Part shown: piece by piece, positions 2,737 through 34,576 of the stretch
Layout of the letters: each line of letters starts with the position of its first letter
How positions within the stretch are numbered: position 1 is the stretch's first letter
NCBI GenBank assembly: GCA_033297075.1
Contig: MU858048.1
Location: 186,001 to 250,000 of the forward strand
From: Rhypophila decipiens
Lineage: Eukaryota; Ascomycota; Sordariomycetes; Sordariales; Naviculisporaceae
DNA: 64,000 nucleotides
Direction: 5' to 3'
Program-made: the position numbers and the translations under genes
Notes under the pieces: generated by a model
What the model was told of the DNA's origin: nothing
What the model saw: only the letters and a program-made list of their open reading frames with translations
Database searches by the model: none

Positions 2737-5700
2737 TCAATACTTATTCTCCTCTTTCTCAGGGGCAGCTTCTGTGATGGAAGCCGACATCTGTGCCCAC
2801 AAATCCTCAGCTGTGGCACCAGCGCTGAATGTCGTACTCACGACAGCTGCTCTGTCATTCCTGGTAAGAGGAGGTGAGCTTGGCATCACCATCTCGTTGC
2901 CCAACAAGTTGCGAAGATGGATGTCAAAGATGGCACTCTGGTCGTCACTATCGATATTTGGCATGGCGGTCAGATCCAGATCACCGAACCCATGCGAGGT
3001 CGAGCCGGTGGTGAAGTCATTCGCTTCGCTCAGCAAGTCCCTCAATGAAGCCGAAAACGGGGAGATGTCTGCCGCCGTAAAGCGTGCCGTGGTATGCAGA
3101 AGATCCTCATCCAAGACAAAGTGAGCATGGCGTGGGCTTCGCCGTTTACCGGTGCTCCCGCTGCCAAGAGCAAAGAGCAGACCCGTGTTGTTAGCCCGGG
3201 TTGAGCGGGGTGTTCTGGATGGCGTTCTCTGGAGTTGGAGAAGCGCCTGGCCCGGAGACATGGCGATCGACCGCGAAATACTCCTAGTAACCGGTCGATG
3301 ACTTGGTGTCGCGCGGGTTGGCGTTTTGAAAGGGCCAGGGACCGACTTTGGAGGTGGAGTGGATGGGCGAGGGGGAGTCCCAAAAAGTTCCTTGTCGAAA
3401 TCGTCGTGGCCCCGGATGAGAGGCGTCGCAGGACACATCTGCGCTACTGGTTGGGCTGGATTCTGGTTCTCCTTTCCCGTACCTGCGGATTTGACCTCTT
3501 GGATGACGGTGGTGGTCTGGACCAAGTTGACGGTTAGCTCTCCAAGCACTTTGGGCACTCCATCCTTCCTAGGTGATGGAAAGAGTAGCCTCCTTGTCGG
3601 TCCAAGGTCATCCTCAATCGCGATAGGGCTATCCGCTGTTCCGCTGCCCCTCGAATGGGTTGATCCCGGCCGGGACTGCTTTGGAGAGCCATTGCAGTTT
3701 AAAAGCTCGCCGTTCAAAACTGTGCCTTGGTCATTGCCACCATCGATCCCATCTACGCTCTGACGTCTCGACGTCATTTCGTTTTCCAAGGGCTCCAGTT
3801 TTGGCAAGTCTTGGTCCCCCGGGCCAATTGGGTCGGTGGCGAAGTAGGCCTCCGAGGTCAGGTTCATTTGACCATCACTCTTGGTGCGCGGCTTTTTGGA
3901 TCGCTTTCTTCGGGGTTGGTTCAGTCGAGCTGCGTCCTTGTCCCACCTGTCAGGTGGCCTGTGACTCTTGAATTTCGTGAGCCAGATACCGCAAGCTATT
4001 CCCGTTAGCAAGGCTCAGCCAAGGATGAGGTCGACAAAGACAAACTTACGATTGCACAAGAGGGTTTCTTTCCAGAGCTGCTTGTTATCCTTGGGCCCGA
4101 GATTCTTCTTGACCAGCACGTGTGCCAGAGGCTTCCCCTCCTCATCCCGCTTGAGAATGTCAATCATGGTTACCATGCCTGGTTTATCGGAAAATTCATG
4201 AAATCCTGGAATACCTTGGTGCTCTTGAGTCCAAATTTTCCGCCACGTAGGCGTCTCAATCGCTCCACAGTTGTTGCAGAATGGTGGCATTTCTCCCTTC
4301 TCGATGGCAATCTCCAGCCGCTCTTTGATAGTATTCTTCTTCACGATATTCTTGCTATAACCCGAGTCACCAGCATCGCTAGGCGGGTATGGGGCCTCCG
4401 ACATAAAAGGTTGAGGCAGTGTCAAAGCTGGCTCGGGGACAGGATCGCTAGCGGGAACGGCCGCCTGCGCCATGCTTTGAGCTGCCTTCGAGAGTGGCTT
4501 TGAGAGTGGCTTTGAGAGTGGCTTCGCGACCGGCAGCGATGGCAGCGACGGCAGCGTTAGGAACTTCTTGGGCGTCGGACGTTCTGGAACTGGCAGGGGC
4601 TTCGGGGGCTTCGGAGGCTCTGCCAATGGTTCGGATATCTCTCTATTCGGTGCCTCAGTGACAGCAACTTCGACCCCTCCGTTCAACGTCTGTGGAGAAT
4701 CATTGAGGTTGGTCACAACTTGCCCAAGTCGCTGCGATTCGGGCAAAGTGAACGAGCCGTCCGTACGTTGTTGCTGGGAATCAGGGAGACAGCAGGATTG
4801 TGACTGATCTTCAAGTGCAGGAAGATGCATGGGTGCCTCTGCCATCTGGACATCCCCATCTTGACCCTGCTCGAGAGAAGGTTGCTGGCTAACTGACCGT
4901 TCTTGTTCCCGCTCCGAGGGAATGGGGTTTGGGTCAGTAGTAGTTCTCTTCTGTGCCGTGTTTTGCTGCTCCTCCTCAGCCAGAAGACTCTCGGCGTCAG
5001 CTCGATGGAGACATTTGGCTCTAGCAGTTGGGTTGTAAAGACTCTTCGACGGTAAGAGTTCTGGAGGTCCGGGATTCACTGCTTGAAAGGGAAAATTCTG
5101 CCTGGACGGATTTGGCGGAACAAGGCTAGAGTTTCGAGCGGCCGGGTTGGTGGTCTGTGGCGCCTGCTTCGAGCGCACATCAGATCTATGGGGTAGTTCT
5201 TGACCCGGTTCCTGAGGGAGGTCCTGCAACATCTGGTCATCGTCGAAGAAGTCGTCAATACCGCCACTCATAAAACCGGAGTCAACCTGAGGTAGTGGCA
5301 GGGGTGGAAGAATGGGACTCGACGCCACCGGACTCGTGCGCATATAGGCACGTGTCCGAGGCACCGGAGGCGATGACCCTATATCGCCAGGGCTGTCTTC
5401 GGGGGTGTAGGCAGCATCGGGTGTCTGAGCAGGTGACTCGGGGGACAGGGCATCCATACTCATACTTCTCTGCATGGGCGCCTGGCTGAACCTGGACTGG
5501 TAGGATAAGCCGCCGCTCGCGGAATCCATCATAGCTTCCGATCTGCTCTTTTCCAAACCCCTCCTCCTATGATGCTTTGGCATCCTGGACATATCGGGGA
5601 CAGGTGTGGGAGCACGTGGTATGTCTTGGCCTTGTTGTCCACCATTTTCGAGTGCTACGGCACCAACAGGTCTCATGTTGCGAAGGGACCCAGATGTGCT

Positions 5701-8820: not shown

Positions 8821-9160
8821 TTAGGGTCCTAATAAAGGAAGGTAATCCAATATAAGGGGAAAGTAAAGTAAGAGGAAGTAAGATAAGGGGGGCTAAAAAA
8901 TAGCCAATATAAAGTAAAGTAGGATTTCCAATTTGCCTTAAATACCTTAAATACCTTAGTTCCCAAATAGGATTAGCCTATAAAAAAGCGGGTTTACGCT
9001 ATAACTAGGAGGGAGATTCTAGGAGCTAATTATATCTCTATTTTCTTACTAATATTACCTAATTTAGTATAGTCTTAGTAACGGCGGTGTGCTGAATGGG
9101 TATATAACCATTGAATTGCAGAAGGTTCTGGTAACTTCTGTAATTTGAGCTCCTTTTAAG
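8821..9160. repeat. AT-rich repeat relic with AAAGTAAAG motifs
   Basis: A sharp compositional change to TA-rich sequence. The motif AAAGTAAAG occurs at 8860 and 8911, and again in both orientations inside the tRNA-like locus just downstream. A small inverted repeat (GGCTA/TAGCC around an A-run) lies at 8891-8905. No coding potential is visible. The loss of C:G pairs looks like repeat-induced point mutation of an old repeat, which is inference. Confidence 0.45.
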
Positions 9161-9397
9161 GAACGGTTTGGCCGAGTGGTATGGTTCTTGGCGCTCGCCG
9201 TCACTTAAAGTAAAGGAAGGTATACTTCCTATATACCTAAGGGAAAGTAAGGGGACCCTCTACTTTACTTTGCTTTGCTCGGAGCCTTGCTTACACTACT
9301 TACAAGCAAAGCAGAAACCCATATTCACACATCATGCGGCTAGTCTGTTGGCTCTCCTGTTAATCCAAAGATATCAGATTCGAACCCAGAGTCCCCT
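9161..9397 (+). pseudogene. interrupted tRNA-like sequence
   Basis: A tRNA A-box-like segment (GGTTTGGCCGAGTGGT, 9166-9181) and a B-box-like segment (GATTCGAACCC, about 9378-9388) are in the correct order, but about 200 bases apart instead of 30-60. The gap contains a hairpin-forming insert bounded by AAAGTAAAG (9207-9215) and its reverse complement (9263-9271). The part just before the B box (CTGTTAATCC) resembles the anticodon loop of a tRNA-Asn (GTT). The T stem and acceptor stem do not pair well, so I read this as a broken tRNA or tRNA-derived repeat and not a working gene. Confidence 0.35.
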
Positions 9398-28470: not shown

Positions 28471-29726
28471 GCCAGTTTGTCTGTTTGTAACAGACAGCAA
28501 TGTTTGTTTGATATCAGATTGACCTGCTCTCCAGTCTGGCCCTACCGCTGACCAAGGCTCTAAAGACAGTGCACATTCCTTTTACCGAGAAAACGAGGCA
28601 AAGTCCGAGTCTCTGTCCCAATTATCTCCAGAGCCCAACTATCCAATCCTTCACATCGAACAAACACATTCGGTCTGCGCCACGGTTCCCAAGGAAAGGA
28701 CCGAATGGACCATGGAAGCCTGAAGCTACATATCCACACCTGCAAGTGTATGCAAGGTTCTCACGCCCTTGATGGGATATTCCGCTACAACCGACCTACT
28801 TTGCGTGGTTGACTCATCCAGTACCTGGGGAACTTGTGCCCCTTGCCTCGGTGACGCATTCATCGAACCCGAGCATTGAGTATGATTAGATGATGAGTGG
28901 TTCTCTTGAGGACACCAGGAATATTTACAAGATTCAAGATTTGAGGATACTATTTGGACAGAATATAGCCACTAACGTCTGATTGTGGGTTGATTCCGAG
29001 GATACTCACTCGTTGGAAGCCCCCTATTACAGTATTAGGAGCATTGGGACAGCGTGACAACATGGTGAGTCTTCCGCAGAGCTGGTGAAATTTCTCAACG
29101 TTTAAAAATTTACTTAAGAATGTCCCCGCTCATTGCCACACAAGCAAGCGCCAGGGGATATAGTTGTCTGAATACTCGGATACCGCTTAACTAGCTGATG
29201 TCTGTGTGGATGTGTTAGTAGATCCTCTTTCTTCCTGAATTTGGACATATCCCGGGCAATATGCCCAAAACTTCCAAATGCTTCACTGAGCTGATAGCAG
29301 CGAATCATCCGCCTCCTTCGTAGTAATTATGTTTAATATTTCGCCTGATTTAATGTACTTGATCATGGTAGCGTGATCTCCTTCTTGTTTGGATCTCAGT
29401 AATTAATGCTTGTGTTACATGTACCCGGGGAGTTATCCGAAAGGCGCGTTCCCGCCCATGGATATGGATGTGGACATCTATCCTCCACCAAAGAGACATG
29501 AACAATCGCCAAGTAACAGCAGCGTTCACAACCTATACGCGGGAGATATATCTGCCTCTCTCTCTATATCCGTCTTAATAATACATGTACACATGGAGGG
29601 GTACGTACAACAAATGGACATGGAGCCTACATATTGACCAACGAATATCAAAGCAAGTCAATCATCCAGGCTTTGTCATCCACGTCGCCTATCCACACTT
29701 GACATCTCAACTGAATGTATATAAAG
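28471..29726. other. intergenic, gene-poor accessory region (centre)
   Basis: No recognisable gene. It is AT-leaning with scattered short frames. It ends at the target site of the mini-retroelement, TAAAG at 29722-29726. Confidence 0.45.
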
Positions 29727-29781
29727 TGTTGCAATATAGACTCAGCTAGTCTTGGTGCGATTAACGTTTTACCGGATGACA
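29727..29781 (+). repeat. left LTR of the TRIM
   Basis: A 55-base direct repeat, identical to 29992-30046, with TG...CA ends. It is unusually short for an LTR. Confidence 0.88.
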
Positions 29782-29793
29782 GGTTATGAGCCC
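29782..29793 (+). promoter_or_regulatory. primer-binding site complementary to a Met tRNA anticodon arm
   Basis: GGTTATGAGCCC starts at the first base after the left LTR. It is the reverse complement of GGGCTCATAACC, the anticodon stem-loop of Met tRNAs (CAT anticodon). Copia and Ty5 prime reverse transcription from a half-molecule of initiator Met tRNA bound at this same arm, so the match is meaningful. Confidence 0.7.
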
Positions 29794-29893
29794 GGGTGGC
29801 GCGTTTGGTAACCGCTACACTCTTCCAAACTGCTATAGAGCTTATAAGCCCAGCGGAAGCGCAAGAGGTAGTGTGTTCGATCCAATCCGCAAC
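29794..29893 (+). ncRNA. tRNA-like segment inside the TRIM
   Basis: TGGCGCGTTTGGTAACCGC (from 29797) looks like a tRNA D arm/A box. CAGCGGAAGCGC further on resembles the D arm of Met tRNA. AGAGGTAGTGTGTTCGATCC resembles a variable loop plus a B box. The pieces do not fold into one cloverleaf, so this is at most a degenerate tRNA-derived pol III promoter. Confidence 0.4.
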
Positions 29894-29991
29894 CGAAAGA
29901 AAAAGACCTCCAGAACCGGCCACTAAGACTACAAAGTTGTATTCATACACATAGAACCTATAGAGCTCCAAGACTATTGAGCCCGGGGGAG

Positions 29992-30046
29992 TGTTGCAAT
30001 ATAGACTCAGCTAGTCTTGGTGCGATTAACGTTTTACCGGATGACA
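29992..30046 (+). repeat. right LTR of the TRIM
   Basis: The identical second copy of the 55-base LTR. It is preceded by the purine tract GGGGGAG and followed by the target duplication TAAAG. Confidence 0.88.
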
Positions 30047-31471
30047 TAAAGTATCAATTTTCTTCAATACAAGCAGGAAACTTGTCGTCACAACATCTCT
30101 CAAAAGATGTTGTCATCCTTTTTCTTACTTGGATCTTTATATACTAGGTAGTAGATATTACCAGATGCTTGGAGTATTTATAAGAGCACGTCCTAGTTAC
30201 ATATCTAACTGGTAGCTGTCCATATCCCGGCCCAACATCCACCATTTATCCGATTCGAAAGTAAATCAAGAGCAGAGAGACTCTAGGGAATCCTTCCTCT
30301 AAAATAATTAGAATAAGATTATTTCCATATACACACATCATAGGTTAGCAACGTCTCAAGGAACAGGAATAGGAACAGGCGGCTACAAATCTAGGCTCAA
30401 AGGAAGTTTATCCAATCCCTCTCATTCTCATGACTCATCCAAAGTCATGTGAGGTTGAAAGTATAAAAGTAGTGTATGTATTGAGTGTAACTACCAAAGT
30501 ACCCAGCCATTGACTAGACATAGTTGGTGATATTGACCCATCAACAGCCGAATCACACTGAAGCACGTAAACAAAGTCAAGGTGGAATAACTATCTGTCC
30601 CCCAAAGCCTAGATCACTAATCCTGACAATATAATACAGGACACCAGATCTACGCCTTTCCATGAATAGGCGGTCATCCTCTCTGATCTGAATTCACAAT
30701 GCAACTTCGATTCACCAAGCTGGCTGCATAGCATGACATGGGGACACCCCTCCGTCACGATATGACGGGAACCCATATAAGCCTCACCAGACACCGATAT
30801 AGAACAGAATACCGGTACTCCGTTAAACTCCTCGGCCCAATCCGCATTGGTCTAAATGTTAAGACATGCATTACATAATCGGGGCCATATGCGGGGGCGA
30901 TTATCAAGCACCATTTTATGGAAGCGATTTGAAGTAACGGAATATCATGGGCGAAGCATGTTGAAAGTCTGGCTTCAGATAATCAGGTTTCTCGTATTCT
31001 TTCTCTGGCAAAAAGGAAGAGGGTAACTTTTGGCGGGGTGGGATCCAACCACACTGGTTCAGTCGACCCGCAACTTCAAACCGCCGCGTCGCCGACCCAT
31101 TCTTCCGCACCTTGAAATCGTCTGTCAATTTCATGTTTAGATGAACCACGGCGGGGTCGACAATTGCTCGAGATACGGAGTAGCCGGGTAATGCACCGGG
31201 AGACAGGTGAGCGACCAGATGGAGGTGGGGGACCCGGTACTAACCGACGGCGGCGGTGAACACCCAAGCCGATATGAACAGAATATAGAAACCACACCTT
31301 CTTGATCATGGAATGCACTCAATGAAGATTATCATGGAGGGTACAAGGGACGGGCTGCCCACGTTTCTTGATGTGGTGTTTTGATGAAAAGTGGTGGCAG
31401 GACACCATGGACTTCCATGGACCTATCGGGTATAGACCCGGGGATAAATACGGGGTACGCTGCTATTCACA

Positions 31472-32400: not shown

Positions 32401-34576
32401 ATGGGAGACGCACTGAAAAGAACATTTCATGGTGAGTTCTCCCCGCATCGACTCAAAAAGCCGCACTGAGGCTCGAGGGGCTGTCGACGATGGACTGACG
32501 ACTCGATTGGCAGGCTGCTTGACATGTCGCAAGCGCAAAGTCCGTTGTCGAGGCGGCGACCCGTGCCAAAACTGTGCTCGTATGAACATCACTTGTCACA
32601 GCTCATTTGACACAAACCTTCGCATCCGAGTATCGACATCGACGGGACAGAAGGATGTCGGATCCAAGCCGAAGCCGAAGCCTATGCGGGCAACCAACAA
32701 CATCCAACCAACCATGATGGCAGCTCGGTCCGCTTTCATCGAGTTCGATGGCATATCCAAACCATACGCGGCTAGCTTCCAAGACCATGTAGGGTCGTTT
32801 CAACTGACAGCGCCAACTCCAGTTTTCACACAGGAGCCGCAGAGTATCCCGCTGCTCGGTTCAGCGTCCGAAATCAACACACTCCAGTATCAGGGCGTCT
32901 GGGGCTATGATTTCTCCCTCGACCCTGCTGTTGACCCTCCCCTCAACCAGCGCCATGATGCGTCACTGGGTGCGACAATCTACGCACCTCCTGGGACGTA
33001 CCCTGCGGCGTCTCGACAAGTCTATCCGATATCCGACAGCGAAGGCTCCATGTCTTCGAAGAGCCCAACACAGAACTTGGAGGGCACAAAGGAATGGGTT
33101 CCTCGCCGTCGAAAGCGCCCCAGGAAGACATCTTCGTCCCAAACACACAGCGGGAATGGTGCGGGGATGATAACTGGCGACTGCGCGGGAAGCCAGGAAT
33201 ACCCCGCCTTTGTTCAAGATAATCCTTGGACACTCGAGGGCTTCGTGCTGAACTTCGTCGAGAAATGTGCACCTCAATGCCCACTGAGGCAGGCGGCAAT
33301 GGCCTGGAGGTCAAGGGAGTCTGCAACCGGTCTGACAGCCATTGATCCCAACGCCGAGACCTGTTACATTCAAGCATCCAACCAGATTGACAAGCTTCTG
33401 ACTTTGGCAAATCCCACTGTGCAACTCGGAAACTTGGCCCCCGTGACGACTGCGGCTGAATATATCATTTGCACATCTTTCTTCCTCAACCGCTATGATA
33501 TCTCAGCCGGAGACATAGAGGTTGCAGACAGCCGGCTAGAGCGCATGGCAAGATGGCTGGGAGACCATCCCGGCGACTTGAACTTGTCCGGATTTGCCAG
33601 CAAGCTTCTCCTGTACTCTTGCTACATTCATATCCGAATAAGTATGTTTGGGGGTGCCTATCCACGCTACACGTTCTTGCTGGATGTGCTCCTCGACAGA
33701 CCAGATCATCACCAGATTGTCCACAATGCAAACAGCTTCTATTGGGATATGTTTGGGAACAGCCTCCCGAAAGAGCTCGTGGATGAGAAGTTGGAGGAAA
33801 TCCCGATATCTCAGCGCCTGCATGAGCTGTTTTGCCTCCTGGCTGGGATGCTGCACTACCGCTCGGCACAGCGCAGCCAAGGGATATCTCAAGACCCGGG
33901 AAGCTGGGAAGAGCACATTGCAGCAAGACATACGGGCATCGAGAACGACCTCCAGAGAGCCGAGGCAGAATTTCATCTCGCCGGGGCAGTGAACCCATCT
34001 GCCGGTGTGCTTCGACGCGGCCCAATGGGAGGGCTCGCTGTCTTGGCATCGACGAGATTCAGCCAGACACCACCTGATCTTGGCGATATGGCGACATCTC
34101 CGTCCTCGCCTATATCAGCTTCGTCGGCTGTGGGCGAGTTGGACAACGTTAGTGCATTGTGGTTGACCGCATATGCCTCGTTCCTGACAGCCAAGATTAT
34201 GTGGTCACGAATCACACAACCCGCGATTCGGACAGACAATGCGTCAGCTGCAGCCGCAGAGACAATCCTACAGATCGCACTACTGTTGCGTCGAGGTCGA
34301 TGGGACAATCTACTGAATTCATCGTCCTTGGTGCTGTGGCCCCTCCCATTGTTCGTCGCTGGGATCGAGACGTTGGACGAGGTACGATCCGACTGGGTAC
34401 AGCTGTTCATGTCCGGAATGCAAGGAGTAGGCATCGGGCCTGGGTCCGGCAGGGAATTGCTCAGCCTGGTGGAAGAGGTGAGGAGAAGACAGGATGAAAC
34501 TGGCACACGGATCTTTGTTGACGAGACCATGGCCGAGACGGGAAGATTGAGAGGTATCTTTGCATTCCGAGGGTAG
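32401..34576 (+). CDS. Zn2Cys6 fungal-specific transcription factor
   Basis: I prefer a two-exon model, 32401-32431 and 32514-34576 (697 residues). The sequence after the ATG at 32429 reads GTGAGT, a strong donor, and TTGGCAG at 32507-32513 is an acceptor preceded by CTGAC. Splicing joins MGDALKRTFH directly to the finger GCLTCRKRKVRC, the usual start of such regulators. An unspliced reading from 32429 gives 715 residues with an uncharacteristic N-terminus. The binuclear cluster is C-x2-C-x6-C-x5-C-x2-C-x6-C, ending at NITC. A basic Lys/Pro linker follows, then a nuclear-localisation-like RRRKRPRK segment. The long helical C-terminal half (from ~260) resembles the fungal-specific regulatory domain (PF11951-type). 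Targets are unknown. It borders the gene-poor region and no metabolic cluster is visible next to it. Confidence 0.85.

What the first reader, a model, noticed from the sequence alone, without database searches (positions are those of the whole stretch)
29727..30046. Intact TRIM mini-retroelement with 55-base identical LTRs
The element has TG...CA LTRs, a purine tract and an exact 5-base target duplication, yet is only 320 bases long. LTRs of 55 bases are very short, and identical copies imply recent movement. It must be mobilised by a Copia-like partner elsewhere. TRIMs are well described in plants and less so in fungi.
Basis: partly seen in the sequence, partly recalled or inferred. Interest (0 to 1): 0.78.

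Follow-up and report, generated by a model that had tools for sequence, protein, structure and literature searches.

The report
Recently active miniature Copia-type retrotransposon family
A 320-base piece of DNA with no genes of its own has recently been copied to at least 17 places in a dung-fungus genome, most likely by the enzymes of a larger Copia retrotransposon with which it shares its start and end signals; it is a well-resolved but ordinary example of a known kind of mobile element.

Summary
Window 29727-30046 has identical 55-base LTRs (TGTTG...GACA), a primer site, a purine tract and an exact 5-base target duplication. The host genome (45.7 Mb; best protein match Rhypophila decipiens, Sordariales) holds 17 full-length copies, one cut by a contig end and six lone LTRs. 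All 17 have exact 5-base duplications, 16 of 17 have identical LTR pairs, no flanks are shared, and the sites show a palindromic preference (A before, T after the duplicated bases). The primer site is a 14-base perfect complement of nt 26-39 of a tRNA-Met(CAT), by its sequence the initiator: half-tRNA priming as in Copia/Ty5. Besides these copies, ten tRNA genes and one unrelated site, it occurs behind one other LTR, of 168 bases, belonging to a Copia family. That family also shares the 12-base purine-tract/LTR junction, and 30 bases at the miniature element's 3' end match its pol gene (0 of 10,000 shuffles). So it is a TRIM cross-mobilised by that Copia family. No integrase-bearing partner copy was found; its pieces stop at contig ends. 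A Pol III promoter (Helenus type) was tested and not supported. Even smaller TRIMs are in print. New family, known kind.

The parts
29722..29726 (.). target-site duplication, 5' copy (TAAAG)
   Evidence: sequence; exact match to 30047-30051
29727..29781 (+). 5' LTR, 55 bases, TGTTG...GACA
   Evidence: 100% identical to 29992-30046
29782..29795 (+). primer-binding site GGTTATGAGCCCGG, complementary to nt 26-39 of a tRNA-Met(CAT) taken to be the initiator
   Evidence: perfect 14-base complement of ten tRNA-Met(cat) genes called by ARAGORN in fetched loci; that they are initiator tRNAs is my reading of the sequence against recalled yeast tRNA-iMet
29796..29984 (+). non-coding internal region
   Evidence: no ATG frame over 46 codons in the element; no Rfam family over its gathering score; A/B box scores at chance
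29848..29862 (+). 15 bases matching the D-arm of the same tRNA in sense, 14 of 15 (unexplained, marginal)
   Evidence: 10 of 5000 shuffles reach the score
29962..29991 (+). 3' internal end, similar to the pol gene of the partner Copia (C314), purine tract included
   Evidence: score 38; 0 of 10,000 dinucleotide shuffles (maximum 34) and 0 of 3,000 random segments of the window and 12 fetched loci (maximum 27)
29985..29991 (+). polypurine tract GGGGGAG; GGGGGAG|TGTTG is identical to the 3' junction of partner copy C377
29992..30046 (+). 3' LTR, 55 bases
30047..30051 (.). target-site duplication, 3' copy (TAAAG)

Best explanation
[quoted passage not shown] Its RNA is primed for reverse transcription by a 5' half of initiator-methionine tRNA (3' end at nt 39) at the site next to the 5' LTR. 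Second-strand synthesis starts at the GGGGGAG purine tract. An integrase joins the product to a weakly palindromic target (GNA-[5 bases]-TNC), leaving a 5-base duplication. All proteins come in trans from the Copia family with 168-base LTRs (pieces at C101, C314, C377), which the miniature element resembles only at the primer site, the purine tract and LTR termini, and in 30 bases of pol. Shown by sequence: structure, copies, duplications, target preference, primer complementarity, shared junctions, pol similarity. Inferred: transcription by Pol II, packaging by Copia Gag, the trans supply of enzymes, and which partner copy did it.
For: 17 full copies among 24 hits, 7 of 17 identical over all 320 bases. 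Exact 5-base duplication in 17 of 17; LTR pairs identical in 16 of 17. In L021 the same LTR variant (position 22) stands in both LTRs, as expected when LTRs are regenerated by reverse transcription. No similarity among 34 flanks of 500 bases. Target bases: A before the duplication in 12 of 17 (P 1.5e-4), T after it in 14 of 17 (P 1.9e-6), G at -3 and C at +3 in 10 of 17 each (P 2.2e-3 each; uncorrected, 25 positions tested, every other P 0.0043 or more). Primer site: perfect complement of tRNA-Met(CAT) nt 26-39. Of its 29 genomic hits, 17 are these copies, 10 are tRNA-Met(CAT) genes, 1 stands behind the 168-base LTR and 1 (C284) is in other sequence. The 168-base LTR adjoins a Copia gag-RT at C314. 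Shared junction GGGGGAGTGTTG. 30-base pol similarity, 0 of 10,000 shuffles. Four of six lone LTRs of the miniature family keep exact duplications.
Against: No integrase was found in the partner: C314 reads gag then RT, and C101, C314 and C377 all stop at contig ends. None of the 9 Pfam rve hits lies on a contig that has a 168-base LTR hit. TRIM and partner LTRs agree only at the ends (9 of the last 13 bases, my count). The pol match was not listed in a first, stricter BLAST and came up with looser scoring before it was tested against shuffles. No transcript, no transposition assay and no empty site in a relative was seen. Four fully read solo LTRs of the partner do not show the A/T preference next to the duplication (A before in 1 of 4, T after in 2 of 4), though +3 is C in 4 of 4; too few to judge.
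Confidence: 0.88

Rival explanations
1. It is a TRIMp3/Helenus element: a TRIM transcribed by RNA polymerase III from a tRNA-derived promoter.
For: By eye the internal region has an A-box-like TGGCGCGTTTGG (29797), a B-box-like GTTCGATCC (29875), a TTTT in the LTR, and 14 of 15 bases of the tRNA D-arm (10 of 5000 shuffles). Most fungal Helenus with a known primer site use the tRNA-iMet anticodon loop, and they make 5-base duplications (PMC10886601).
Against: Best A+B box score is 13 on the + strand and 14 on the - strand, of 18 possible. Of 2000 shuffles (best of both strands) 668 reach 14 or more, and so do 726 of 1975 random segments of the window. ARAGORN finds no tRNA in the window; the Rfam search of 29600-30200 at E up to 10 lists two weak snoRNA matches and no tRNA. 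Helenus is defined by a tRNA-like sequence in the LTR; this LTR is 55 bases and none was found in it.
Confidence: 0.05
2. A different reverse-transcribing family (for example the complete C221 Copia or a Gypsy) mobilises it, and the resemblance to the 168-LTR Copia is incidental.
For: Of the six RVT_2 loci fetched, C221 is the only one where an LTR pair around the RT was found (212-base LTRs 99.5% alike, duplication GAGAC, 1178-codon pol frame), whereas no complete 168-LTR Copia was found.
Against: The C221 primer site is ATTAAGAGTCTC, not this one. Neither it nor the other four Copia loci align to the TRIM interior above a score of 24, against 38 for C314.
Confidence: 0.1
3. The copies are segmental duplications or an assembly artefact.
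For: Several copies lie on short contigs.
Against: 17 of 17 have different flanks and different exact 5-base duplications; no similarity among 34 flanks of 500 bases; copies occur inside long contigs too (C4 807 kb, C7 711 kb).
Confidence: 0.01
4. The 30-base match to C314 pol is chance; the TRIM shares only primer site and purine tract with the partner.
For: It is short, with three mismatches and one 2-base gap, lies in an odd place (before the RT), and a stricter BLAST did not list it.
Against: 0 of 10,000 shuffles (maximum 34 against 38) and 0 of 3,000 random 3.1-kb segments (maximum 27); 0 of 500 in the first test. C314 was linked by LTR and primer site before the match was seen.
Confidence: 0.05

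Closest known systems
SMARTs / FRetro129 with FRetro64 (grasses; PMC3281118, passages seen)
   Same: 292 bp, 85-bp LTRs, TGT...ACA ends, 5-bp duplication; Copia partner whose LTRs are not similar apart from an 11-bp motif, but which shares primer site, purine tract and internal sequence.
   Different: There the interior is 96% identical to part of the partner; here only primer site, purine tract and about 30 bases of pol. Host is a fungus.
CcaRetroS9, smallest plant TRIM of that survey (PMC4717578, passage seen)
   Same: Very short LTRs (52 bp) and ten complete copies.
   Different: 233 bp, plant; no partner mentioned in the passage seen.
Fungal Helenus (TRIMp3; PMC10886601; abstract, passages and two named sections seen)
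   [quoted passage not shown] the interior of LTR-1_PTrit corresponds to the two ends of a Copia interior.
   [quoted passage not shown] none found here. The fungal Helenus named in the passages are from Pucciniales and a few Agaricomycetes; this is an ascomycete.
TRIMs annotated in ascomycetes, e.g. Cochliobolus heterostrophus (PMC4112212, passages seen)
   Same: Non-autonomous LTR elements related to a Copia family, in an ascomycete.
   Different: Those passages give counts and family, not primer site, target preference or internal anatomy.

Membership tests
TRIM | two short LTRs with TG...CA ends | tested here: met
   55-base identical LTRs
TRIM | primer-binding site next to the 5' LTR and polypurine tract next to the 3' LTR | tested here: met
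TRIM | small and without coding capacity | tested here: met
   320 bases, longest ATG frame 46 codons
TRIM | dispersed copies with target-site duplications | tested here: met
   17 of 17 full copies with 5-base duplications
TRIM | moved by proteins of another element | not testable with these tools
   needs an assay; partner inferred from shared sites and pol similarity
Copia-type (half-tRNA primed) group | primer site complementary to the tRNA anticodon region and 5-base duplication | tested here: met
   tRNA-Met(CAT) nt 26-39; 5-base duplications. That this points to Copia/Ty5 rests on PMC10886601
Helenus / TRIMp3 | tRNA- or 5S-like Pol III promoter in the LTR | tested here: not met
Retrozyme | hammerhead ribozyme | tested here: not met
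   no hammerhead among the Rfam matches at E up to 10
SINE | no LTRs, tRNA-like head, target-primed insertion | tested here: not met
   LTRs present; constant 5-base duplications

The most novel reading that the evidence does not exclude
The element is a near-minimal substrate for the Copia machinery, assembled from parts and not shrunk by simple deletion. Its LTRs and most of its interior are foreign to the partner. Only the primer site and LTR edge at one end, and a 30-base block at the other, look Copia-derived, and that 3' block, purine tract included, comes from inside pol (before the RT) and not from the partner's own 3' end. A purine run inside pol was thus turned into the working second-strand primer site. 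This would separate what Copia enzymes need in cis (about 14 + 12 bases and TG..CA ends) from LTR identity.
Probability: 0.4. Interest if true: 0.5.

Novelty: new member of a known kind. Interest (0 to 1): 0.32.

Why it matters
For some TRIMs and their kin no partner has been found, and the LTRs of partners need not match (PMC10886601; PMC3281118). Here a partner can be named from the primer site, the purine-tract junction and a block of pol, in a dung fungus with several sequenced close relatives (PMC12734299, passages seen), so recent movement and cis requirements can be tested cheaply. Otherwise it is a tidy, ordinary example.

Tried and rejected
Pol III / tRNA-like promoter: A and B boxes looked convincing by eye but score at chance; Rfam and ARAGORN show no tRNA; RNA folding of the element and of the 5' interior is unremarkable (z -0.56 and -0.70). 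A sigma-70/terminator scan is not meaningful for a fungus and found nothing.

C221 Copia as partner: rejected on its primer site. Similarity of the TRIM interior to the 665-base leader of the partner at C101 beyond the primer site: not above shuffles (58 of 500 reach it). Idea that the element escapes repeat-induced point mutation (RIP) because it is short: RIP indices of the window and of the C314 and C221 Copias are not RIP-like, and RIP-like 500-base stretches are 2 of 254 in the window, 2 of 38 in L052 and 0 in the nine other loci counted, so there is little sign of RIP for it to escape; the length threshold is recalled from Neurospora. The TRIM's own indices (1.44, 0.90) fall in the RIP-like range, but over 320 bases I do not read them. 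An integrase-bearing partner copy: looked for with Pfam rve, Pfam gag and an integrase-bearing homologue; the best other integrase hit, C351 (42% to the homologue), is on a contig without a 168-base LTR hit. C151, fetched as another candidate, gave nothing usable in the one frame read. Papers on transposons in this host: (Rhypophila decipiens with transposable elements) found 0; that is no proof of absence.

Full report
The observation. Window 29727-30046 is bounded by two 55-base direct repeats without a mismatch, beginning TGTTG and ending GACA, and flanked by TAAAG on both sides. Next to the 5' repeat stands GGTTATGAGCCCGG, next to the 3' repeat GGGGGAG. There is no ATG frame over 46 codons.

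Host. The window lies in a 45.7-Mb assembly of 408 contigs. The 715-codon frame at 32429-34573 is 95% identical over 695 residues to a Rhypophila decipiens protein. Rhypophila is in Naviculisporaceae, Sordariales, and the Rhypophila genomes in the table passage seen are 45.9-48.3 Mb (PMC12734299). The species itself is not established.

Copies. A whole-genome search gave 24 hits: 17 full-length copies, one copy cut by the start of contig C353, and six matches to the LTR alone. All 17 full copies carry an exact 5-base duplication, each of a different sequence, and 16 of 17 have identical LTR pairs. Seven of 17 are identical over all 320 bases. No two of the 34 flanks of 500 bases resemble each other, so segmental duplication is excluded. 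An LTR-core pattern gave 40 matches with none for the control.

Signs of reverse transcription and integration. In L021 the same substitution (LTR position 22) occurs in both LTRs. L019 and L020 share one variant, and L023, L024 and L025 share others, at unrelated sites, so more than one source copy has probably been active. L016 has a variant at LTR position 52 only in its 5' LTR, and the cut copy on C353 has that variant in its 3' LTR, which is what copying of a 5' LTR's U5 into a daughter would give (one case only). Target sites are palindromic around the duplication: A in 12 of 17 just before, T in 14 of 17 just after, G and C in 10 of 17 three bases out. Of the six lone LTRs, four have exact duplications and two (L027, L031) have none; five are longer (57 or 67 bases) than the 55-base LTR of the full copies, which suggests an older history before the present burst.

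Primer. The 14 bases after the 5' LTR are the perfect complement of nucleotides 26-39 of a tRNA-Met(CAT), ten genes of which ARAGORN finds in the loci fetched for this word. ARAGORN says only Met; I take them as initiator tRNAs from their likeness to yeast tRNA-iMet, which is recalled. Priming at the anticodon loop is known for Ty5 and Drosophila Copia and is the main type in fungal Helenus, according to PMC10886601 (section read).

Partner. The primer-site word occurs 29 times: 17 in this family, 10 in tRNA-Met(CAT) genes, once at C284 in other sequence, and once at C101 directly behind a 168-base LTR. That LTR has 20 further matches, some partial. Two stand as 3' LTRs of a Copia: C314, with Pfam Retrotran_gag_2 and RVT_2, and C377, whose 132 internal bases are 98% those of C314. 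Four read in full with flanks (L058-L061) are lone 168-base LTRs with exact 5-base duplications, 4 of 4; the other 14 were not read. The junction of C377, GGGGGAG|TGTTG, is the TRIM's junction letter for letter; C314 has GGGGAG. The last 30 bases of the TRIM interior align to C314 pol with 27 of 30 identical and one 2-base gap. A first, stricter BLAST of the element did not list this; with looser scoring it came up, and against 10,000 shuffles and 3,000 random segments of the window and 12 fetched loci none reached its score. The matched stretch codes ELQDLIDAGG in C314, upstream of the RT domain. Five other Copia loci give no such match.

What does not fit. The partner as assembled has no integrase: C314 goes from gag to RT. 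Seven homologues compared align to its 663-codon frame from their own residue 99 to 499 onward, so they have more in front, and four of the seven carry the integrase domain PF00665 in the precomputed list. The only PF14223 gag hit in the genome is C314. All three internal pieces end at contig ends, so an assembly gap is the simplest reason, but a complete partner was not seen. The TRIM LTR is not the partner's LTR; only the termini agree (9 of the last 13 bases, counted). In the four fully read partner solos the base before the duplication is A once and the base after it T twice, but +3 is C in all four.

How it most likely works. Transcript from the 5' LTR (polymerase unknown; Pol II assumed), packaged with the Copia proteins, first strand primed by a half tRNA, strand transfers through an R region that must lie inside 55 bases, second strand from GGGGGAG, integration by the Copia integrase. 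These steps are inferred from the anatomy; the products (LTR homogeneity, duplications, target preference) are shown.

Pol III. An A box, B box and a TTTT caught the eye, and Helenus elements make this worth testing. The box scores are at chance level in shuffles and in random window segments, and Rfam and ARAGORN find no tRNA there. I reject it, leaving unexplained a 14 of 15 base match to the D-arm of the primer tRNA in sense (10 of 5000 shuffles; the tRNA was one of several compared).

Novelty. Small TRIMs with Copia partners and dissimilar LTRs are known (SMARTs, 292 bp), as are shorter LTRs (52 bp) and TRIMs in ascomycetes. One search found no paper that names Rhypophila decipiens together with transposable elements; the listings (10 of 49 papers shown; 8 of 12 shown) have no title on Rhypophila transposons, and the Naviculisporaceae genome paper has no word beginning with transpos. 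This is a new family of a known kind with an unusually clear partner assignment.

Noticed in passing
L051 (G000:C314:17171-20456): Copia with 3' LTR, gag and RT but no integrase between them, running off the contig end: an internal-deletion derivative or an assembly join.
   Followed up: partly
L053 (G000:C221), LTRs at 3999-4209 and 9152-9363: Copia with an LTR pair of 212 bases 99.5% alike, duplication GAGAC and primer site ATTAAGAGTCTC, which I take (recalled) as the anticodon loop of a tRNA-Lys: half-tRNA priming with a second tRNA in the same genome.
   Followed up: partly
window 29848-29862: 14 of 15 bases of the D-arm of the primer tRNA in sense inside the TRIM; the orientation does not allow simple pairing.
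   Followed up: partly
L027-L032, around base 4000: Lone LTRs of the miniature family: four of 57 bases, one of 55, one of 67; two of six (L027, L031) without target duplication.
   Followed up: partly
L016 (C400) and L026 (C353): LTR position-52 variant present only in the 5' LTR of one copy and in the 3' LTR of another: possible parent and daughter.
   Followed up: no
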